Shown: positions 45,111 through 55,222 of the stretch, one piece after another
Numbering within the stretch: position 1 is the first letter of the stretch
How the letters are laid out: the number at the start of each line of letters is the position of its first letter
Source of the DNA: Nitrosopumilus ureiphilus
GTDB lineage: Archaea > Thermoproteota > Nitrososphaeria > Nitrososphaerales > Nitrosopumilaceae
Length of the DNA stretch: 64,000 nucleotides
Reading direction: 5' to 3'
Assembly: GCF_013407185.1 (NCBI RefSeq)
Contig: NZ_CP026995.1
Span: 747,578 to 811,577 of the forward strand
Notes under the pieces: generated by a model
What the model saw: only the letters and a program-made list of their open reading frames with translations
What the model was told of the DNA's origin: nothing
Databases searched by the model: none
Program-made: the position numbers and the translations under genes

Positions 45111-46019
45111 TCATGGATTTTTTGTAGTTACTGTAACTCCGTCTTCTAATGGAATGAATGTGTGTTCTGCCTGAGCAACTCTTTGCTCATTTACTTCAAT
45201 TAGAACTGGATATGCCTGGACTGCTTTCTTTTTTATTAAAATATCTAGTAATTCCCTTGCTTGTTTTTCCTCCCATTCTTTTGTAATCCATCTCAATGCA
45301 AATGGCAACATGTTAAATTCCTCCCAGATAAAATCAAGTAGTCTGTCCGCTTCTGCATCTTTTGTTTTCTTACGAGAATTTATTGCAAAAATATTTTTAA
45401 TCTGTCCATTTCTGACAAATCCTCCTCCCTGTTCTGTGGTGACAAATGGTTCACATGCATATGCAGAATTCTCTGAAAGTGAAAATCCTCCAATTGACCA
45501 AATATTTGGAATGGATTTTCCTGCATGAATGGTATATTGCTCTAATGAATGCCCGCTAAGATTTGCAATTGGTTTGTATCCTCTTTGCTTAATCGTGGTT
45601 TCAATTGTACGTCCGATGTCACTTGCTTTTACTCCTGCTTTTATCATGGACATTGCTTTTCCTAAAGCTTCTTCTGCAGCTTGGACTAATCCATCAAATT
45701 GCGCATCATAGCAAACAGTTACTGCAGTATCTGCAATGTATCCATTAATTTGAGCACCAAGATCAATTTTTACCATATCTGTATCCTTGATTGTAATTGG
45801 ATCATCAGGTTCTGCAGTATAGTGTGCTGCAATTTCATTAATACTGGCGTTTACTGGAAATGCACATTTTGCTCCTCTTTTTTTGATTTCACCTTCAACT
45901 TCTTCACAAATATCATACACTGATTTTCCAATCCAGTCTTTTACTCTGACTCTTTCTCTTACTTCTGCAGCAATTTTTCCTGCTTTGAGATATTCTTCTA
46001 ATTGCACATTTTTGTTCAT
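45111..46019 (-). CDS. map: Methionine aminopeptidase, type II
   Basis: Removes the initiator Met from nascent proteins. The 302 residues have the pita-bread fold with family II insertions: VKIDLGAQINGYIADTAVT (two metal Asp residues), LSGHSLEQYTIHAGKSIP (metal and catalytic His) and VNEQRVAQAEHTFIPLEDG (last Glu). Length matches archaeal MetAP2. The small zinc protein follows. Confidence 0.95.
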   Translation of the reverse strand: MNKNVQLEEYLKAGKIAAEVRERVRVKDWIGKSVYDICEEVEGEIKKRGAKCAFPVNASINEIAAHYTAEPDDPITIKDTDMVKIDLGAQINGYIADTAVTVCYDAQFDGLVQAAEEALGKAMSMIKAGVKASDIGRTIETTIKQRGYKPIANLSGHSLEQYTIHAGKSIPNIWSIGGFSLSENSAYACEPFVTTEQGGGFVRNGQIKNIFAINSRKKTKDAEADRLLDFIWEEFNMLPFALRWITKEWEEKQARELLDILIKKKAVQAYPVLIEVNEQRVAQAEHTFIPLEDGVTVTTKNP

Positions 46020-46361: not shown

Positions 46362-46435
46362 GGGATTGTGGTCTAGCTTGGTATGATTCTGCGTTTGGGA
46401 CGCAGAGATCGAGTGTTCAAATCACTCCAATCCCA
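46362..46435 (+). tRNA. tRNA-Pro (anticodon TGG)
   Basis: A 74-nt cloverleaf: acceptor GGGATTG/CAATCCC with discriminator A, anticodon stem CTGCG/CGCAG around TTTGGGA (anticodon TGG, codon CCA), and T arm GAGTG TTCAAAT CACTC. No intron or encoded CCA is required; the following bases are CCACT. The 3' region contains no long conserved genes until 47.9 kb. Confidence 0.95.
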
Positions 46436-46583
46436 CCACTAATCATTATCTTATTATCAAATCAATCCCCAGTTTAGTTGCCGAGCAATGAGGAAGAGTT
46501 AGAGAATTGACTTTGAAATGAAGTAAACTAATTGGCTCTGAGCTCCGGCATGTTTTTATGACTTTTTTGAGGTGTTATTTTAA
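46436..46583. other. Intergenic stretch downstream of tRNA-Pro
   Basis: No gene is seen. A TATA-like tttttatgac at 46553-46562 precedes the TTG start at 46584 by about 27 nt and probably is the promoter of the membrane/zinc protein. Confidence 0.4.
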
Positions 46584-46829: not shown

Positions 46830-46906
46830 TTCCTACGTATGCCTTAATACTGAAAAATTGCAAAAATATTCATGTCTTTAAGATATGTACCTTTAACAAC
46901 AAGCTC
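46829..46906 (+). repeat. Dispersed repeat, copy A
   Basis: Begins ATTCCTACGT and ends CTTTAACAACAAGCTC. The same two blocks, 70-85 nt apart, occur at 51773-51868, with weaker similarity between them (taAATAC..AAAA.TTG). Both copies lie in noncoding DNA and on the same strand. Possible small RNA, leader or worn element. Confidence 0.45.
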
Positions 46907-46952
46907 GGTCTGAAAAGTCAGGCTTTTAATCCTTTTATGATGATTTCACTTA

Positions 46953-47030
46953 ATGTCCTTCTTCTTGTTAAAGAAAAAACGACTCAGAACATGGGGTGAA
47001 AAACTTGCCCGTATTTTTAATAAAATATGA
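46953..47030 (+). CDS. Possible 25-residue basic peptide
   Basis: ATG 46953 opens MSFFLLKKKRLRTWGEKLAR with a short tail before TGA. It is basic and amphipathic like a small RNA- or membrane-binding peptide. It is too short to judge coding potential. Confidence 0.35.
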   Translation: MSFFLLKKKRLRTWGEKLARIFNKI

Positions 47031-47063
47031 TTGGTTAGTTACAAAATTTGAATTGGCATCAAC

Positions 47064-47300
47064 TTAGTCAGTATGTTTTTTACCATCCCTATATTTTCCA
47101 CTGTCTATGTCTTCAAAGACAAATTCGATGGATGCAGTATAATCATAGGGATTTACTATATTGTCCCCAAGTGATATTGCTTTTCCAACTGAGTCATATG
47201 CAATGCCATGTTTATCTCCATATGGTTTAGCAAATGCAGGATTAATAACAAAAATTAAACTTGCAAATACAATTATTCCCAACAGAAATTTGGAATTCAT
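47064..47300 (-). CDS. Small exported protein
   Basis: A 78-residue protein with a clear signal peptide (MNSKFLLGIIVFASLIFVIN, cleavage after AFA) and a polar mature part of about 50 residues rich in Asp/Tyr/Gly. ATG 47300 is chosen; earlier in-frame ATG codons only add polar residues. The family is not known. Confidence 0.65.
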   Translation of the reverse strand: MNSKFLLGIIVFASLIFVINPAFAKPYGDKHGIAYDSVGKAISLGDNIVNPYDYTASIEFVFEDIDSGKYRDGKKHTD

Positions 47301-47571
47301 CGCAACCATACTCATTCTGAAACGTTTTAGTTTTGTCTTTTAAACATGTCTGGGTTTCATACTATATGACTTACATAGAATAGTAAAAGTCATCAGCATC
47401 ACAAATTCGATTTATTTTTAGAAGTCAGATCGATTATCCTTTTTGCGGAATAGAATTGTCTTGGTCAGGAATAATCAATCGCTAATGTTGGCTATAGTTC
47501 ATCCTCAAATCTGAAATCTAAATTTTTAGAATATCATGTCAATAAAGAATCAATATTTTTTCATTATTTTA

Positions 47572-47649
47572 TGGACACCAAATCTCAACAGATTCATGTC
47601 CATGTAAGAATAAAATTTACGTATAATCATTTAGATCTGTTGAGGTTTA
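47572..47649. repeat. Nested inverted repeat, left side of cassette
   Basis: ATGGACA (47572) pairs with TGTCCAT (47598), enclosing AAATCT/AGATT. In addition AAATCTCAACAGAT (47581-47594) pairs with ATCTGTTGAGGTTT (47636-47649) with one G-T pair. The core AAATCTCAACAGATT recurs at 50013-50027 right of the cassette. Confidence 0.6.
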
Positions 47650-47730
47650 GAAAAACAATAAATGATTGACTTTGATTTAAGATATAGTACAAGGGCCTCC
47701 TAGAAATCATCAAGATTTCACTCATTTGTA

Positions 47731-47753
47731 GATCAGAACAGATCCTTCTGATC
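47731..47753. promoter_or_regulatory. Hairpin/palindrome GATCAGAA-TTCTGATC
   Basis: A perfect 8-bp inverted repeat with a 7-nt spacer, 126 bp upstream of the cassette start codon. It could be an operator for a dimeric regulator or a terminator stem; no T-run follows, which favours an operator. Confidence 0.45.
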
Positions 47754-47878
47754 CATTTAAAATGACAATATCTTTAAAACATTATAAATTAATCATAATT
47801 TAACATTGTGCTGTAAACATAGATACTTGATATCATGTAATATGAAAATAATAAATACTATTACTTTCTATAGGTGGC

Positions 47879-48556
47879 ATGCCAAATCCAGGACAAGAAC
47901 TTTCTAGTATAGATTTTGAATCAATGTTAGGTGGACCATTAGTTGCAGTAGTTAAAGCACAAGCACAAGCAGCCATGTCAAGTGTAAATTTTATTAAAGA
48001 AGTAGGTTTCAAAAAGAAACCAGCAGATCAACAAGATTCTGAATCTTTTGAAACAGAAGAACCAATTTATGTCAAATTCAAATATTGGAAGGAAACAAAA
48101 CCATATGAACCAGCAGTACCTGCAAATCCTGGAGATTCAGCTGCTTCCCCACCAATTCCATCTTCCCCCCTAATACCAGCTTCACCTGCAGAATACCAGC
48201 AACACGATTTAGAGGTTCCAATTCTTACTATGCTTCCAATCCCATTCATTCGGATGGAAGAAACCACAATTGATTTTAATGCAAAAATAAACTCGGTTGA
48301 ATATCAATCTACAGATACAAATTTCAAAATCAATGCCTCTCTTGAAGCAAAAGCAGGATGGCTTTGGGGATCTGCCAAACTAAAAGTTTCTACCTCATAT
48401 CAACGCAAAACATCTCAGGGCAGTGAAGTGAATAGAACTTATTCAATGGCAGTACATATCAAAGCAGTTCAAGATGAAATGCCAGCCGGAATGGAAAGAA
48501 TACTTGGTATTTTAGAGGATGGAATAAGAGCAACTCCAAATAATGTCACTGCTTAA
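47879..48556 (+). CDS. DUF2589-type protein, first gene of an unknown cassette
   Basis: A 225-residue protein. The N-terminal ELSSIDFESMLGGPLVAVVK and QAQAAMSSVNFIKEVGF follow the DUF2589 pattern; then a Pro/Ser-rich linker (about 75-110), a beta-rich domain (FNAKINSVEYQST; LKVSTSYQRKTS) and AVHIKAVQDEMPAGMERIL near the end, again typical of the family. No signal peptide is seen. DUF2589 has no established function. A good Shine-Dalgarno (AGGTGG) precedes the ATG. Two further genes follow with spacings of 32 bp and -1 bp. Confidence 0.68.
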   Translation: MPNPGQELSSIDFESMLGGPLVAVVKAQAQAAMSSVNFIKEVGFKKKPADQQDSESFETEEPIYVKFKYWKETKPYEPAVPANPGDSAASPPIPSSPLIPASPAEYQQHDLEVPILTMLPIPFIRMEETTIDFNAKINSVEYQSTDTNFKINASLEAKAGWLWGSAKLKVSTSYQRKTSQGSEVNRTYSMAVHIKAVQDEMPAGMERILGILEDGIRATPNNVTA

Positions 48557-48588
48557 AACTGACTAAAATGTGATATTTTTGTTTAGAT

Positions 48589-49290
48589 ATGGTTAACCTA
48601 AATGAAGTAATAGCAACTATTCTCAGTGATTTGGCACTTGCACGTGTACAGGCAGATATCGAATCAATAAAAATTGCAGAGACATACGCTAATGATCCCC
48701 TTCTCAAGAATTTATCCATACCAAGAATGAGATTAAGAAGTGTTTCAATATCATTACCTGTTGCCATTGACAAAGTTGATGAGAGGAAAATTGCAGAATC
48801 AAAAAAACCAATCAGTAGAAATGAGTTACTTCAGGTTACACAAAATTCTTTTGAAAATACTATATCTAAAAGAAAATTATCGATGTCTAGAAATGATTCG
48901 GATAAAATAAAAAAATCCCTCGGAAGAAAAATTATACTAGTTGAAAAAGAACTGCCATGGATTATGAATGATGCAGTCACATTATCAAATGTCATATCTA
49001 ATGAAGTTGGAAATAAATTAGAAGATGTAAGGGTGGCAGAAGGTAAAAAACTAACTAGTGTAGAATTGAGAGAAACAATTGATGAGATTAAATTAGATTT
49101 GAAGAGAGGAATTTCAAATCTACGAAGACCTCCCAATTTAGAAGTGTCTGTAAATACCGGGGAGTTAAAAAATATGTCGCCAAAAGAGACTCTTGCGGGT
49201 TTTAATTTAACCATAGATGAAGATGGAATGGAATGGTCTACGTGGGAATCAAATTCGGGTGTTGTAAAAAAACAATTGGTGCCTGAATAA
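48589..49290 (+). CDS. Second gene of the DUF2589-type cassette
   Basis: A 233-residue protein of unknown family. The N-terminus (LNEVIATILSDLALARVQAD) is helical and again has the LALARVQAD phrase that echoes the DUF2589 start, followed by beta-like RMRLRSVSISLPVAID, then a long Lys/Glu helix region and a beta-rich end (NLTIDEDGMEWSTWE). It may be a structural partner of the first protein. Its last base is the first base of the next start codon. Confidence 0.6.
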   Translation: MVNLNEVIATILSDLALARVQADIESIKIAETYANDPLLKNLSIPRMRLRSVSISLPVAIDKVDERKIAESKKPISRNELLQVTQNSFENTISKRKLSMSRNDSDKIKKSLGRKIILVEKELPWIMNDAVTLSNVISNEVGNKLEDVRVAEGKKLTSVELRETIDEIKLDLKRGISNLRRPPNLEVSVNTGELKNMSPKETLAGFNLTIDEDGMEWSTWESNSGVVKKQLVPE

Positions 49291-49886
49291 TGTTAAAAAT
49301 TAATTATCGTACATATGAAAAACTTGTTTTGGTTTCAAATCAAGTACCACAACTTGTAGATTTGTATGAACAAAGAAATGGTATATTTACAGAATCTGTA
49401 AAATTATGGCTAAAAAATGTAGAAAAAATTTTCAAAGAAGCCAAATCAACTAAAGCCTCTGAGTTTTCAACATTAAGACTGATGATTTTATCGGGTGAGA
49501 GAGGGGTAATAAAAAATGACTCTAGTTCAGGACATATTTCTAAGAGAAAATTCGTTGATGGGCTAGGTATTCAGGCATTAACCCAAAGTCAAAATAATCT
49601 TCAACCTATTCTTAGTAGATCTGAAGAAGAATTTTCTCAATACAAACAATTAATTCGAAAGATGTTTGCAGTAGCATCGGATTCGGAATTTATTGATAAA
49701 ATTCCTAAACATTTTACTACTTTTGATATTTCATTTTTTTGGAAAAATTTTCTTTCTGATCCTATCACATCTAGCTGGGCTTCTAGAATTCTTGAATCTG
49801 CAAGTTATTCAGATACAATTATTTTGGTTAACGAAGTTTTAGATGAATTAAGAAAGGAACAAAAGCAAATGATGATGAAAAAATAA
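49290..49886 (+). CDS. Third gene of the DUF2589-type cassette
   Basis: A 198-residue, mostly helical protein with no known motif (YEKLVLVSNQVPQLVDLYEQ; LMILSGERGV; SWASRILESASYSD). Its start overlaps the preceding stop (TAATG), so translation is coupled. No signal peptide or membrane helix. It ends 127 bp before the right inverted repeat. Confidence 0.6.
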   Translation: MLKINYRTYEKLVLVSNQVPQLVDLYEQRNGIFTESVKLWLKNVEKIFKEAKSTKASEFSTLRLMILSGERGVIKNDSSSGHISKRKFVDGLGIQALTQSQNNLQPILSRSEEEFSQYKQLIRKMFAVASDSEFIDKIPKHFTTFDISFFWKNFLSDPITSSWASRILESASYSDTIILVNEVLDELRKEQKQMMMKK

Positions 49887-50430
49887 AATTTGATGTTTGA
49901 AAAATTTAAAATTTTGAATCTCAATCCAGATGTTTGTTTAGAATTAAGATTCAACCCACAACAAATATGATCGTTGAATAAAGTTATGATAAAAATCTGA
50001 CGCTAAATGATCAAATCTCAACAGATTTGAATTGTATGGACCGTTGAGGGTTTGAATTCTGGTTTTCATTTTTTCTAAATGAAATCGTCTTAAAATATTC
50101 TGCCGAAATTAATTGATTGTAGTAATTTTATCAAATGTTGTCAAGATGTGGCTTGGGATAGTTAGAAAATCATACTCCAGATTGAGATAATGAACTATTT
50201 GAGATCAAGAAAGGACAAAAACTATTGTGTGAGGCTATTCAATTCAATGGCAAGTTTCTTTCTGTTTATTGTGTCTATAATTTTTCTTCTTTATTTAGAA
50301 CAATGACATTTTCTAGTTTATTTTTCAAAGGTGTATCTATCATGTGTCCTATACTGTCTTCATCTTTGCACATGACAGAATGTCCCAGTAATACTTGGGA
50401 TGTATCATATTTTCATCTCAATTACTTGAA
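49887..50430. other. Noncoding region right of the cassette
   Basis: Contains the inverted-repeat element at 50012-50054. A frame of 25 codons with a hydrophobic centre (50229-50306, GTG start) is possible but unsupported. Otherwise AT-rich and without a gene I can name. Confidence 0.5.
50012..50054. repeat. Inverted repeat, right side of cassette
   Basis: CAAATCTCAAC (50012-50022) faces GTTGAGGGTTTG (50043-50054) with AATCT-CAAC-AGATT as inner hairpin. The 15-nt core AAATCTCAACAGATT is identical to the left element at 47581, and TATGGAC also recurs. This suggests the pair belongs to one element or a repeat family. Confidence 0.55.
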
Positions 50431-50769
50431 TTATCTGGAAAATAGTTTTGCGAAAAAGGATTTCTTTTTTACATATGTGGGAATCTTTTCTGTTTTTGTA
50501 TTTTGTTTACTAATAATTTCGTCAAGAACTTCATCTGAAATTAGGGTTTTGTGACTACTTTCTTTTGGTTTTGTCGTTTTGACTGTATTTCCTTGCAATC
50601 TGCGTATTCTATGTTCAAGTTGCTCAGTCATAGATTCTAAAAATACCCTATCTGTTTTGTAAAGCGGTCTGTTTTTTTCTATACATTCTAAAATAAATCT
50701 TAATCTACCTTCATCCCCCATTCCTGAATTAAGAAGATCAGTTGCCATTGTCTTATAATCTAATTTCAA
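50431..50769 (-). CDS. Hypothetical protein with charged helical domain
   Basis: A 112-residue protein. The N-terminal half (GDEGRLRFILECIEKNRPLY, then TDRVFLESMTEQLEHRI) is a helical motif that I associate with several thaumarchaeal proteins, where it precedes variable tails. The C-terminal tail is basic (VKKKSFFAKLFSR). No enzyme motif is seen. It lies between the cassette and the tnpB relic. Confidence 0.6.
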   Translation of the reverse strand: MKLDYKTMATDLLNSGMGDEGRLRFILECIEKNRPLYKTDRVFLESMTEQLEHRIRRLQGNTVKTTKPKESSHKTLISDEVLDEIISKQNTKTEKIPTYVKKKSFFAKLFSR

Positions 50770-50976
50770 TTTTTTATTTGGTTAAAAATTTACTAATAAC
50801 TCTTTCATTTTTGTATGTGCTTTACAGAAATATATCCTTGAAATTAAAATATATGTTGACGTAGAAAATCCACAATAATTAAATTATAAAACAATCAAAA
50901 TTAAATTGACTATGCAAACCCTAGGAGAGGTTCGCGAGCTTTTAGGTAAGGCATTGTCATTTAGGGTTCTGTCGGG

Positions 50977-51283
50977 TTATCGAGACCCATACTTTGACAC
51001 ATCGACTATCTGGATTACCACATCATCATAATTTGATGTGTTGGGTTCCGACATCCGTGAAAAAAGTTCACTTGTCGCTTCACCTGTATCCACTCTAGGA
51101 TGGGTAAACCTAGCCCACCCCTTGTAGGCAATGTTCAATGACGCTACAATGTCCCTGTCCATTGATTTCCTACAATTATTGCACCATAGTTTTCGCCTGT
51201 GTTCCTTGTCATCTTGGATTTTTTTTCGCATACTGGACAAAGTTTGCTGGAATTCCTTCCCACTTACTCTTATGGAATGTGAG
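50977..51283 (-). pseudogene. tnpB: TnpB (IS200/IS605 OrfB) C-terminal relic
   Basis: The minus strand encodes the TnpB end: LCPVC (one frame), then after an A8 run (51219-51226) LWCNNCRKSMDRDIVASLNI and AYKGWARF in the next frame, followed by an unusual tail ending DVSKYGSR. CxxC plus CxxC is the TnpB zinc finger and the Asp of DRDIVAS is the last RuvC residue. A second frame change near 51255 separates HSIRVSG. The N-terminal two thirds are absent: at about 51283 the sequence switches to the omegaRNA-like element, which points the other way. TnpB is an RNA-guided nuclease; this copy is dead. Confidence 0.75.
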
Positions 51284-51284
51284 C

Positions 51285-51558
51285 GGGAAAACTCAACCCT
51301 TTAGGGTTGGGATGAAAGCGAACACACCACAACTCAAAACAAAACACAATCAAATATTCAAATACAAGATGCGTGTAAGAAAACCAATGACATATGATAC
51401 CACAGGAACTGTGGGAATCATCAAAATACAAACGCCTGAGTCTGAAAAGACAGTCCCCGACCAAGGGATGTGAGAGCCACAACCACAAATGTCTGCGAAA
51501 GCAACTTTGAGGCTCGATGAAGCAGGAAGCCACGATGCTTTAGCGAGTGGTAGTTCAC
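51285..51558 (+). ncRNA. OmegaRNA-like element (IS200/IS605 right end), copy 2
   Basis: Same architecture as 14445-14739: GAGCGGG, hairpin 1 CTCAACCC-TTTA-GGGTTGGG (51292-51311), ATGAAAGCGAACAC, hairpin 2 CCACAG-GAA-CTGTGG (51400-51414), then GAAGCAGGAAG, hairpin 3 CCACGATGC-TTTA-GCGAGTGG (51530-51550) and TAGTTCAC. The stems differ from copy 1 but pair fully or nearly so. The sequence after TTCAC (gtggttacaaaattaagaat) would be the guide if it is an omegaRNA. It sits head-to-head with a tnpB relic, not downstream of it. Confidence 0.6.
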
Positions 51559-51928
51559 GTGGTTACAAAATTAAGAATATAGGCTAAGCATCTACTGACT
51601 TCTTAGACCTATCTTTAGAATTAATCCAATTTTGTAATATCGATAAGGACAAGATTATCTTCAAAACATCATCTTGAATTCAAAAAAAAACTTGATCTAC
51701 CCGAGTCAGTTACGAACTAAGACTATTGTTTCTTAAAATGGAGATATTTTTGATGATTTTGAATAAAGGATCATTCCTACGTTGTCTCTAAATACCAAAA
51801 AGTTGTAAATTACGCATGATAAAGCCGCAAAAAGTCAGATATTTGAGGTCAACTTTAACAACAAGCTCAACTTTTCCTCAATTTCATTCTAAAAAGAGTC
51901 CTATATTCAATCAAATCAGGAAACAACA
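51559..51928. other. Noncoding region before the lamin-tail protein
   Basis: Holds dispersed repeat copy B (51773-51868) and the likely promoter of the large surface protein. No gene is seen. Confidence 0.5.
51773..51868 (+). repeat. Dispersed repeat, copy B
   Basis: Shares ATTCCTACGT at its start and CTTTAACAACAAGCTC at its end with 46829-46906, same strand, spacing 96 against 78 nt. It ends about 60 nt before the ATG of the 1097-residue protein, so it may be part of that gene's leader. Confidence 0.45.
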
Positions 51929-54900
51929 ATGAATCGTAATCTATCTTTAGTGTTATCTTTGGTACTTCTTGCAGGAATAATAGCTCCAGTATATGCACAA
52001 ACAAACACCAACCATGTTGTAATTAATGAAGTTGAAATCAATCCACCTGGAAATGATGCTTCATCTGTATCTGAGTGGATAGAGCTTTACAATCCTACAG
52101 AATCAAATGTTGATTTAGGCGGATGGAAAATTGCATCAACTACAGTTCTCAAAAAAACTATGACGATACCTGCTGGAACTATAATTAAACCTGGACAATT
52201 CTTGACATATTCTTATCAGAGTCTCTGGTTTACAGATTCTAATGAATCAGTTGAATTAAGAGATAATACTGGAGTTGTAATTGATAAAACTCCTGCAATA
52301 GCAGACATCAATAATGACTTTAAATCTTGGCAGAGAATCTATGATGGTTTTGATTTCGACATTTCAAGTGATTGGAAATTTGTAACATCTACTGCAGGTT
52401 CATCAAATGGAAAACTTGTAGAGACAAAAAAATCCGATGAACTAACCGTTACCATTTCTTCAGAAAAACAATCATATCTTTTTGGTGAGACTGCCATTCT
52501 AAAAGGAAATATTTCAAAAGAGGTGTTTATTACAAAACCCTTTTTTAAACCTGAACAGATAGTTGTAAATATTTCTGGTCCCAACTTTAGCAAAATTGTA
52601 ACTCTGTATCCCGATCTTAATCTCAATTTTAAAACGACACTTAATCTACAACAAGTACTTGGAATAAATCAAGGAAGTTATGATGTGTCTGTTAGTTATG
52701 CTGGTGCAACTGCAAATACTAATTTTTCTGTAGGATCTGAATTAATTAAACAAGTAGAAAAAGAAGACGGCTCTATTACTGTTCTTACAGACAAGTCTCA
52801 GTATCTTCCAGGACAAACAGTTTCAATTTCAGGACTAGCATCAAAGATTATCCCATTTGAAGGAATGAAATTGACTGTAAAGGATTCTGATGGTAAAGTG
52901 ATATCTGGTGGAACTCTATATCCAACAAAAGATAAATTCACAACTAATGTGTTCTTAACAACTGTAAATCCTAGTTATGGCACTTATGAAATTAATGCAG
53001 AATACTCTGACAAGTCGGCATCAACTACTTTTGAAGTAATCAAAGATATCAAAGAAGATGTACCCATTTCATTATGGACTGACAAAGAAGTGTATGGACT
53101 TGGAGATATCGTAAACATTTCTGGAAGATTAAATCAAAATTGGGTGGGAACACTTGATTTGGAGATAATTCAATCAAAGAGTTTGTCTTTAGGTACTAGT
53201 AGTCAATCTGGCGGTGGTTCTAGTTTTAAAATATTAGATTCAGTAAAAGTTGACGGTGATGGAAAATTCAAATATTCTTTTACTATTCCTACATCTGATT
53301 CTCGATTAGGTAATTACTGGATAAAAGTTGCCAAAGATGTCGGATCTGCTACAAAATTCATCAAAGCAGTTGAAAATCCTGAAACATATGTCGCATCTAC
53401 TGATCCTTTGGTGGTTACCACTAACAAATCAAATTATGATTTCAGTCTTGATAAAAAACTCATCATTAGCGGTCAAATATTTACTCCTAAAGCAAGAACA
53501 AGTTTTGAAGTACCAACTGTAAAAATTTCAATTTTAACTGAAGATGGTAAACCACTTCAAATCATTGGTTCAACTGATGCTGGCAAATTATCTACAAGTG
53601 GAGTTTCAGTAGGCTATGACTTTACTGCAATCCCTGAATCTTCTGGATTGTTTTCTACTGAAATTGGTTTGGAACGACTCATATTTTCTGAAGGAAAATA
53701 TTTGATCAAAGCACAATACGAAGGACGCTCATCCAGTACAACTTTTGAAATAAGTGATCTACTTAATCTAGGAGATACCAGCATTAATGCTTCTTTAGAC
53801 AAGTCAGTGTATGGTTTAGGTGAAACAATAAAACTAACTGGAATTTATTCTGCTCAAACAACTGATTCTCAAGGCGTAGAATTAACCCTTCACAAGCCTA
53901 ACGGTAATATTGATAAATATGGCACAAACATTGATGGTGGATTTTTTTCATGGGAATGGAAAACACCTGTTAAACAAAGCGTCAATTTAATTGGAAATGA
54001 GCGCTCAAAGGCCACTTCTAATTTGGGTATCTATAGACTAAATGTGGCAACTGGTGATTTTAACACTGATATTCTTTTCAAAGTCTCTCTGAATCCTGAA
54101 GATGATGAACTAATTGTTCCACCGTTATTTGTTTCATCATCAAAGTCATTATACAAAGCTGGCGAGAAACTTTTGGTTGAAGGAACTGTGAATAAATATT
54201 CTAAAGGTTCTGATGGAGCTGGAACCCCACAACGCGTAACAATTAAAATTATTGATGGTACATTCCCATATGCTCAGATTTATGAATCTGCTGTTTATCC
54301 TGACCAAGGAGGTGCATTTCAAAGTACTTTTGAAATGCCGGTAACTATATTTTCTGAAGGACAGTACAAAGTAAAAGCAATCTACAAAGGTATTCAAACT
54401 GAAAATACTTTCAGCGTTGCAAATGACTTTACTTTCGGTTTGGATGGCCCAGTTGCCTTATTGATATCTACTGATAAATCTGAATATTATCCCGGTGATG
54501 TTGTCGTTATCTCGGGAAAGCCAAACAAGTTGATTTATCTTGAAGCGTTTGATGTAAGTGTCGTGAAAAAAACTGGTTCTGAAATTACATGTGGTTCATT
54601 TATTTGCGGTAAAAACACCGGGCCTGTGACAACAATTCGGCCTAGTCCCTCAGGTTCGTTTTCTCACCAATTTGTAATTCCTAATTCTATGTCTTCGATT
54701 GGTTTGTATCAAGTAACCGTCGATGCAGATTTTGAAACTAAATCAATTCAATTTAATGTAGTTGAAAAACCACCAACTCCAAAATTAGATACAGTAATTG
54801 AAAAAGAAAACAGAATCTCTGATAAAATAATTTCGGTGTTGACTGAGCAAAAAACTGTCGATGATGTCTTAGTTTCCCCTCGAGTCCTTTCAGGCTCTTT

Positions 54901-55222
54901 GATTACTCCTACAAGAGGAGATGAATCTTCGGTGAACCTCAAAGTTTCATCTGCGTCTGGAATCTGCATAATTGGTCAAGAACCTGAATGTCTAGTCAGC
55001 GAATCCACTAGAAAACCTGGGCAAATTTATGATGTAGTTGAAGTTGATGGAATGTCAGTTAATATACGATATAGTGGCTCTGACGTTCGATTAGAGAAAT
55101 TCAGCATATTACCTGAATCTTCGGATGCATTTTTGCCTGATACAAATTGGAATGTTGAAATTATTAAAGATGAACAAGTTTCACGATTCTACTACAAAGT
55201 AACATACAAAGCACTAGAGTAA
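51929..55222 (+). CDS. Large exported protein: lamin-tail domain plus Ig-like repeats
   Basis: A 1097-residue surface or secreted protein. Signal peptide: NLSLVLSLVLLAGIIAPVYA (about residues 4-23). Residues 30-150 form a lamin-tail (LTD) domain (VVINEVEINPPGND, EWIELYNP, GGWKIAS, NESVELRDNTG). The rest consists of about seven beta-sandwich repeats of some 100-120 residues, each starting like LxTDKSxYxxGxxVxISGxx (for example VLTDKSQYLPGQTVSISG, LWTDKEVYGLGDIVNISG, ISTDKSEYYPGDVVVISG), similar to macroglobulin/Ig-like modules of archaeal surface proteins. No C-terminal anchor is visible. Likely role in cell surface or adhesion; inferred. Confidence 0.83.
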   Translation: MNRNLSLVLSLVLLAGIIAPVYAQTNTNHVVINEVEINPPGNDASSVSEWIELYNPTESNVDLGGWKIASTTVLKKTMTIPAGTIIKPGQFLTYSYQSLWFTDSNESVELRDNTGVVIDKTPAIADINNDFKSWQRIYDGFDFDISSDWKFVTSTAGSSNGKLVETKKSDELTVTISSEKQSYLFGETAILKGNISKEVFITKPFFKPEQIVVNISGPNFSKIVTLYPDLNLNFKTTLNLQQVLGINQGSYDVSVSYAGATANTNFSVGSELIKQVEKEDGSITVLTDKSQYLPGQTVSISGLASKIIPFEGMKLTVKDSDGKVISGGTLYPTKDKFTTNVFLTTVNPSYGTYEINAEYSDKSASTTFEVIKDIKEDVPISLWTDKEVYGLGDIVNISGRLNQNWVGTLDLEIIQSKSLSLGTSSQSGGGSSFKILDSVKVDGDGKFKYSFTIPTSDSRLGNYWIKVAKDVGSATKFIKAVENPETYVASTDPLVVTTNKSNYDFSLDKKLIISGQIFTPKARTSFEVPTVKISILTEDGKPLQIIGSTDAGKLSTSGVSVGYDFTAIPESSGLFSTEIGLERLIFSEGKYLIKAQYEGRSSSTTFEISDLLNLGDTSINASLDKSVYGLGETIKLTGIYSAQTTDSQGVELTLHKPNGNIDKYGTNIDGGFFSWEWKTPVKQSVNLIGNERSKATSNLGIYRLNVATGDFNTDILFKVSLNPEDDELIVPPLFVSSSKSLYKAGEKLLVEGTVNKYSKGSDGAGTPQRVTIKIIDGTFPYAQIYESAVYPDQGGAFQSTFEMPVTIFSEGQYKVKAIYKGIQTENTFSVANDFTFGLDGPVALLISTDKSEYYPGDVVVISGKPNKLIYLEAFDVSVVKKTGSEITCGSFICGKNTGPVTTIRPSPSGSFSHQFVIPNSMSSIGLYQVTVDADFETKSIQFNVVEKPPTPKLDTVIEKENRISDKIISVLTEQKTVDDVLVSPRVLSGSLITPTRGDESSVNLKVSSASGICIIGQEPECLVSESTRKPGQIYDVVEVDGMSVNIRYSGSDVRLEKFSILPESSDAFLPDTNWNVEIIKDEQVSRFYYKVTYKALE

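What the first reader, a model, noticed from the sequence alone, without database searches (positions are those of the whole stretch)
47879..49886. Three-gene DUF2589-type cassette of unknown function
The genes are tightly coupled, have a strong Shine-Dalgarno (rare here, where leaderless starts prevail), and lie in a low-density accessory region after tRNA-Pro. The first belongs to DUF2589, a family without function; the second echoes its N-terminal motif; the third is unknown. No enzyme motif is present, suggesting a structural assembly or a defence/competition device.
Basis: partly seen in the sequence, partly recalled or inferred. Interest (0 to 1): 0.7.

Follow-up and report, generated by a model that had tools for sequence, protein, structure and literature searches.

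The report
Mobile three-gene DUF2589 protein module
An ammonia-oxidising archaeon carries a transferred set of three genes of unknown function that also travels, always together and in the same order, through many unrelated bacteria and archaea, probably making one protein assembly used in microbial conflict; what it does has not been shown.

Summary
G1 (47879-48556) is a clear DUF2589 protein. G2 (48589-49290) shares G1's N-terminal module (profile comparison, P 2e-6). G3 (49290-49886) is a confidently predicted all-helical protein with no solved counterpart. G1-G2-G3 recurs in this order in 44 loci (31 after removing near-duplicates) from archaea and many bacterial phyla. In 40 whole genomes chosen for G1, G2 was present in 40 and G3 in 27, nowhere as an intact gene away from G2. 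Here the cassette sits in a 4.95-kb insertion flanked by a 16-bp direct repeat that is single-copy in the relatives examined. None of 99 relatives has G1 or G2. A sister genome holds an ABC-3C predicted conflict system in the same interval. G1 is far more conserved between loci (75%) than G2 (42%) or G3 (35%), as expected of an assembly-forming subunit. Elsewhere the operon often gains an unexported hydrolase; the window copy has none. I conclude it is an undescribed mobile multi-protein module. A cytosolic assembly with a conflict role is the most likely function, but this is inferred. The 'strong Shine-Dalgarno' abuts the start codon and is doubtful.

The parts
46362..46438 (+). tRNA-Pro (TGG), conserved anchor beside the insertion hot spot
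   Evidence: present at the same place in nine relatives' loci
46891..46906 (+). left copy of 16-bp direct repeat CTTTAACAACAAGCTC (att/target-duplication-like border)
   Evidence: single copy in all 9 relatives' loci examined, two copies only here
46907..51852 (.). 4.95-kb insertion that carries the cassette
   Evidence: empty-site comparison: 668-698 bp between the flanking genes in G002, G006, G007, G035, G053 against 5,910 bp here
47850..47857 (+). TATA-like AATAAATA about 26 nt upstream of the G1 start codon (read by eye)
   Evidence: sequence; inference
47872..47877 (+).
47879..48556 (+). G1: DUF2589 protein, 225 aa; N-terminal helix (res 13-43), Pro-rich loop (about 75-104), amphipathic beta region (about 129-196), conserved QDEMPAG and C-terminal helix
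   Evidence: PF11655 90.1 bits; AF2 pLDDT 70.6; column alternation
48589..49290 (+). G2: 233 aa; shares G1's N-terminal module, helical-looking middle, conserved C-terminal segment; no Pfam family
49290..49886 (+). G3: 198 aa, all-helical, no Pfam family and no PDB or viral fold match
51853..51868 (+). right copy of the 16-bp direct repeat

Best explanation
G1, G2 and G3 are the parts of one horizontally mobile, cytosolic protein module. Inferred working: G1 is the main building block. Its N-terminal helix and long amphipathic strands probably complete their fold only on self-association or with G2, which carries the same N-terminal module. G3 is a helical adaptor, cap or regulator. The assembled complex serves as a conflict (defence or antagonism) device or carrier. 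In many lineages the operon also encodes a hydrolase without a signal peptide (protease or peptidoglycan hydrolase), which would be the effector or cargo. The archaeon of this window has only the three-gene core, so its effector is missing, unlinked or the assembly itself. Shown here: obligate co-occurrence, shared G1/G2 module, mobility, accessory status, co-divergence, unexported hydrolase neighbours in relatives. Inferred: physical complex, assembly by G1, conflict role.
For: Same gene order in 44 loci, 31 non-redundant, in archaea (Bathyarchaeota, Methanothrix, Methanocellales, ANME-3) and bacteria (Armatimonadota, Planctomycetota, Pseudomonadota, Bacteroidota, Chloroflexota and others). 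In 40 whole genomes G2 is in 40 and G3 in 27, nowhere as an intact gene away from G2. Distance matrices of G1/G2/G3 correlate, r 0.79, 0.70, 0.79, 0 of 2000 permutations. G1 median identity 75% against 42% (G2) and 35% (G3) in the same 15 loci. G1/G2 share a module. The AF2 monomer leaves the alternating amphipathic stretch 141-186 unfolded. No transmembrane segment in most copies. Related operons carry several copies of G1 (up to eight DUF2589 genes). Unexported hydrolases adjoin: S8 subtilase plus a 65-aa partner (L046, L048-L059), NlpC/P60-like (L062, L064, L065, L072, L073, L077; MepS match 1e-4), PG-binding + N-acetylmuramidase (L010, L080, L091), PG-binding/M15-like (L024, L041), HEQDH protein (L017, L028), papain C1 (L084). 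Absent from 99 relatives; inserted with a 16-bp duplication; the same interval in G051 holds an ABC-3C system and a tyrosine recombinase.
Against: No hydrolase or other effector in the window copy or in many other type A loci. No match in PADLOC, so no independent defence label. The only literature mention is metabolic: DUF2589-related genes AF0414-AF0417 of Archaeoglobus fulgidus are up on lactate (PMC3949148). The G1 model is of low confidence and its fold search empty, so the assembly idea is not structural evidence. Hydrolase neighbours were found by inspection of loci without a background rate for random neighbours.
Confidence: 0.42

Rival explanations
1. A cargo-carrying protein particle or lattice: G1/G2 build a shell, tube or fibre that stores or releases hydrolases against other cells; G3 loads or caps it.
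For: Extreme conservation of G1 relative to G2/G3; arrays of up to eight DUF2589 paralogues; adjacent hydrolases lack signal peptides, as cargo of injection devices or endolysins do; a Tc-toxin-A-like ORF lies near one cassette (L030).
Against: No sheath, tube, baseplate, capsid or holin gene recurs beside the cassette; no fold match; many cassettes have no cargo gene.
Confidence: 0.2
2. A pore-forming or membrane-permeabilising module, with G1 contributing amphipathic beta-hairpins and proteases or wall hydrolases acting with it (functional analogy to protease-activated pores or holin-endolysin pairs).
For: Near-perfect alternation of hydrophobic and polar columns over 129-176 and 184-196; that stretch unfolded in the monomer model; muramidase, M15 and protease partners.
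Against: Alternation fits a soluble beta-sandwich equally well, and the polar face carries conserved K, D and E; the only profile hit to a pore-forming lectin is insignificant (E 0.6); most copies have no strongly hydrophobic segment.
Confidence: 0.12
3. A metabolic or storage scaffold, or a stress complex, with no role in conflict.
For: A. fulgidus DUF2589-related genes respond to carbon source (PMC3949148); no defence-library match; many cassettes stand alone among ordinary genes.
Against: Patchy presence, spread across domains and hot-spot insertion; no metabolic gene recurs beside the cassette.
Confidence: 0.22
4. Remnant of a virus or provirus.
For: Two viral-catalogue contigs and one fecal 'phage' clone hold a DUF2589 gene.
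Against: Only 2 of 2.9 million viral contigs; no PHROG for G1-G3 apart from one weak G3-relative hit; no viral genes seen in the 4.95-kb insertion; no viral fold match for G3.
Confidence: 0.04

Closest known systems
DUF2589 (Pfam PF11655), family of unknown function
   Same: G1 is a full-length member (90.1 bits, cut-off 23)
   Different: Pfam describes one protein; the obligate partners G2 and G3 and the three operon types are in no library searched here
Archaeoglobus fulgidus AF0414-AF0417 (PMC3949148)
   Same: clustered short DUF2589-related genes in an archaeon
   Different: only expression on lactate is reported; whether G2/G3 homologues are included was not examined
ABC-three-component (ABC-3C) conflict systems
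   Same: three-gene mobile cassette; one occupies the same genomic interval in sister genome G051
   Different: ABC-3C has an ATPase, a middle component and a CTD protein; none of G1-G3 resembles these
Injection-device or phage lysis cargo (muramidases, NlpC/P60, M15 enzymes without signal peptides)
   Same: unexported hydrolases beside DUF2589 operons in other genomes
   Different: no injection machinery, holin or hydrolase in the window cassette

Membership tests
DUF2589 (PF11655) | profile match above curated cut-off over most of the domain | tested here: met
   G1 90.1 bits against 23, profile positions 2-152 of 154
DUF2589 three-gene module (type A, as defined here) | G1-G2-G3 on one strand in this order | tested here: met
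   44 loci; window 47879-49886
ABC-3C conflict system | ATPase plus middle component plus CTD effector protein | tested here: not met
   no such Pfam match in G1-G3; it is present in G051's insert
Known anti-phage defence systems (PADLOC-DB 2.0) | profile match of a component | tested here: not met
   G1, G2, G3 and two relatives each of G2 and G3: none
Known anti-phage defence systems (PADLOC-DB 2.0) | protects against phage or virus | not testable with these tools
   needs a challenge assay
Type VI secretion TssA/VasJ (for G3) | TssA profile or fold | tested here: not met
   one of 33 G3 members hit T6SS_VasJ at 2e-4, but the confident G3 model has no PDB match at E<=0.001
TorD-type chaperone (for G3) | TorD-like sequence or fold | tested here: not met
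   profile hit E 0.036 not supported by fold search
Contractile injection system / tailocin | sheath, tube and baseplate genes in the cluster | tested here: not met
   no recurrent neighbour family of that kind in flanks of up to 10 kb, judged by clustering and inspection
Protease-gated pore former (gasdermin-like pairing) | paired protease and pore-forming protein | tested here: inconclusive
   operonic proteases seen only in Flavobacteriia and Pelagibius; pore activity untestable here
Toxin-antitoxin pair | toxicity of one gene neutralised by another | not testable with these tools
   needs expression assays

The most novel reading that the evidence does not exclude
G1-G2-G3 define a new class of self-assembling protein particle, spread across bacteria and archaea, with interchangeable unexported hydrolases as cargo, used in antagonism or programmed lysis; the window shows its minimal, cargo-free form in an ammonia-oxidising archaeon.
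Probability: 0.18. Interest if true: 0.88.

Novelty: categorically new. Interest (0 to 1): 0.62.

Why it matters
A tightly linked three-protein module shared by distant bacteria and archaea, with two protein families absent from every library searched and a confidently predicted fold without a solved counterpart, points to an undescribed molecular machine. The asymmetry (G1 nearly frozen, partners free to diverge) and the exchangeable hydrolase neighbours give directly testable predictions about assembly and cargo, and offer a first handle on the function of DUF2589. That DUF2589 is catalogued, and that preprints and subscription papers were not searchable, limits the novelty claim.

Tried and rejected
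Sequence search of the PDB with G1 alone and with profiles of all three gave nothing significant. Fold searches: G1 model too uncertain to mean anything; G3 model confident but unmatched in PDB and BFVD, which left the weak TssA and TorD leads without support. PADLOC, NCBIfam and PHROGs: nothing significant for G1-G3. Phage and plasmid collections: three distant DUF2589 genes only. The idea that the island is integrated into the tRNA was rejected: the left border lies about 450 bp beyond tRNA-Pro, after the conserved 81-aa gene, and no tRNA fragment is duplicated. Kelch-subtilase upstream of L025 was not counted as a partner: it has a signal-like N-terminus and a 600-bp gap. Rfam: nothing in the cassette.

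Full report
WHAT IS THERE. The window lies on a single 2.17-Mb chromosome of a genus with many sequenced relatives. G1 is a DUF2589 protein at 90 bits; G2 and G3 match no family above cut-off. G1 and G2 are 32 bp apart; the G2 stop and the G3 start share one base. Among 53 ORFs of 120 aa or more, only G1 has AGGTG in the 18 nt before its start, but the motif ends 1 nt before the ATG. A TATA-like AATAAATA about 26 nt upstream suggests a leaderless start, so I do not accept the Shine-Dalgarno argument. The G1 start is supported by the conserved N-terminus MPNPGQELSSIDFESM in the homologue of G171.

AN ISLAND WITH CLEAR BORDERS. None of 99 relatives (59 of the same genus) has G1 or G2; across the phylum 5 of 398 genomes have a DUF2589 gene. 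The gene for the aminopeptidase-like protein (45111-46019) and the 1097-aa surface-type protein gene (51929-55222) that flank the site are separated by 668-698 bp in five relatives and 5,910 bp here. Alignment places the insertion at 46907-51852, flanked by CTTTAACAACAAGCTC on both sides; nine relatives' loci each have one copy. The insertion also holds a TnpB C-terminal remnant (50977-51240, minus strand) and a 290-bp dispersed repeat (51270-51558; a dozen near-full copies and many fragments in the genome). The same interval is about 1.75 kb, 8.5 kb and 21.8 kb long in four other relatives. In G051 it carries an ABC-3C predicted conflict system (CTD7, MC3, DUF3732) and a phage-type integrase.

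A CONSERVED THREE-GENE UNIT. A collection scan with a G1 profile gave 79 loci. G1 of the window is about 70-75% identical over 220 aa to proteins of Armatimonadota, Planctomycetota, Smithella, Thiodiazotropha, Dongia, Draconibacterium and methanogens. Six-frame profile searches show G1-G2-G3 in 44 loci, including the genomes G171 and G353 of the same phylum. In the whole genomes behind 40 loci, G2 is present in all 40 and G3 in 27. The 13 without G3 are ten of other operon types, one whose contig ends just after G2, and two others. The only G3 trace away from a cassette is a broken fragment in one genome. G1, G2 and G3 distances correlate strongly, so the cassette largely moves and diverges as a unit. 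In the G1 tree archaeal and bacterial sequences interleave; this fits transfer between domains, though many loci are binned MAG contigs and branch support is moderate. Isolate genomes (Vibrio, Kordia, Flavobacterium, Chryseobacterium) and the single-contig window and G171 genomes show that binning error is not the explanation. In Chryseobacterium 31 of 78 genomes have the family, the patchiness of accessory genes.

RELATED OPERON TYPES. Type A is G1-G2-G3. Type B is G1-G2-second DUF2589-zinc ribbon, in Bacteroidota, with a peptidoglycan-binding N-acetylmuramidase in gut members. Type C is two DUF2589 genes, a short G2 and, in six of the seven loci, a protein with an NlpC/P60-like core (DCSG/A motif; MepS matches at 1e-4) and a C-terminal domain, in Hydrothermarchaeota, Nostocaceae, Calditrichota and Desulfotomaculum. 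Rumen and gut Bacteroidales have arrays of up to eight. Type A cassettes are sometimes joined by a subtilase with a 65-aa partner (Chryseobacterium, Tenacibaculum), a PG-binding/M15-like enzyme (L024, L041) or a HEQDH protein (L017, L028). These hydrolases lack N-terminal hydrophobic signals by a simple hydropathy test. The window copy has no such neighbour.

PROTEINS. G2 aligns with G1 over the N-terminal helix and the following strand pair (E 2.3e-6). The G1 model has a long N-terminal helix, a beta hairpin whose loop is the variable Pro-rich insert, and an unresolved stretch 141-186. In the family this stretch alternates hydrophobic and polar columns almost perfectly, so it is a set of amphipathic strands that the monomer model does not place. 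G3 is modelled at pLDDT 92.6 as a helical protein with a 46-residue central helix and has no significant counterpart in PDB or in viral models. Among 15 close loci median identities are 75% (G1), 42% (G2) and 35% (G3). Such freezing of one subunit is what I would expect of a self-assembling building block; this is inference.

MECHANISM. Shown: obligate linkage, shared module, mobility, accessory status, co-divergence. Inferred: one cytosolic assembly with G1 as main subunit, G2 as heteromeric partner and G3 as adaptor or cap. Its role is most likely in conflict, because of its spread, its insertion site and the kinds of enzymes attached elsewhere. Rivals are a cargo-carrying particle, a pore-forming module and a metabolic or storage scaffold. 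The only published lead I found, up-regulation of DUF2589-related genes on lactate in Archaeoglobus fulgidus (PMC3949148), speaks for the last. Nothing here excludes it.

KNOWN OR NEW. G1 belongs to a catalogued family without function. The module as such matches nothing in Pfam, NCBIfam, PADLOC, PHROGs or the PDB, and the library of 5.4 million open papers mentions DUF2589 once. I rate it as outside known kinds of system, with the caution that its function is inferred and that preprints and subscription papers could not be searched.

Noticed in passing
window 51270-51558: A 290-bp dispersed repeat: about a dozen near-full copies (90-96% identity) and some 20 fragments in the 2.17-Mb genome, next to a TnpB remnant; perhaps a non-autonomous IS605-type element.
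   Followed up: partly
window 50977-51240 (-): C-terminal remnant of a TnpB (Cas12f1-like TNB domain, 5.7e-5); three further copies at 74-80% in the genome.
   Followed up: partly
window 47579-47594 and 50012-50027: Exact 16-bp direct repeat CAAATCTCAACAGATT brackets the cassette closely; may be a trace of movement or chance.
   Followed up: partly
L101 7017-12803 (G051): ABC-3C predicted conflict system (CTD7, MC3, DUF3732) with a tyrosine recombinase in the same genomic interval of a sister genome: a hot spot worth surveying.
   Followed up: partly
window 46483-46546: Weak C/D-box snoRNA-like match just after tRNA-Pro (E 0.28, below gathering score); could be an archaeal C/D sRNA.
   Followed up: no
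L013 5968-8014 (G334): Two divergent DUF2589 genes flanking a small ORF and a DUF4332/helix-hairpin-helix protein: a further operon variant.
   Followed up: no
L030 4770-12692: A giant ORF with a Tc-toxin-A-like N-terminus lies near a G1-G2-G3 cassette in a CSSED10-310 bin; named only, not examined.
   Followed up: no
L017 12193-12744, L028 12055-12606 (fragments in L016, L018): A 183-aa protein family with an HEQDH (HExxH-type) motif, unknown to Pfam, directly follows G3 in bacteria and a methanogen.
   Followed up: partly
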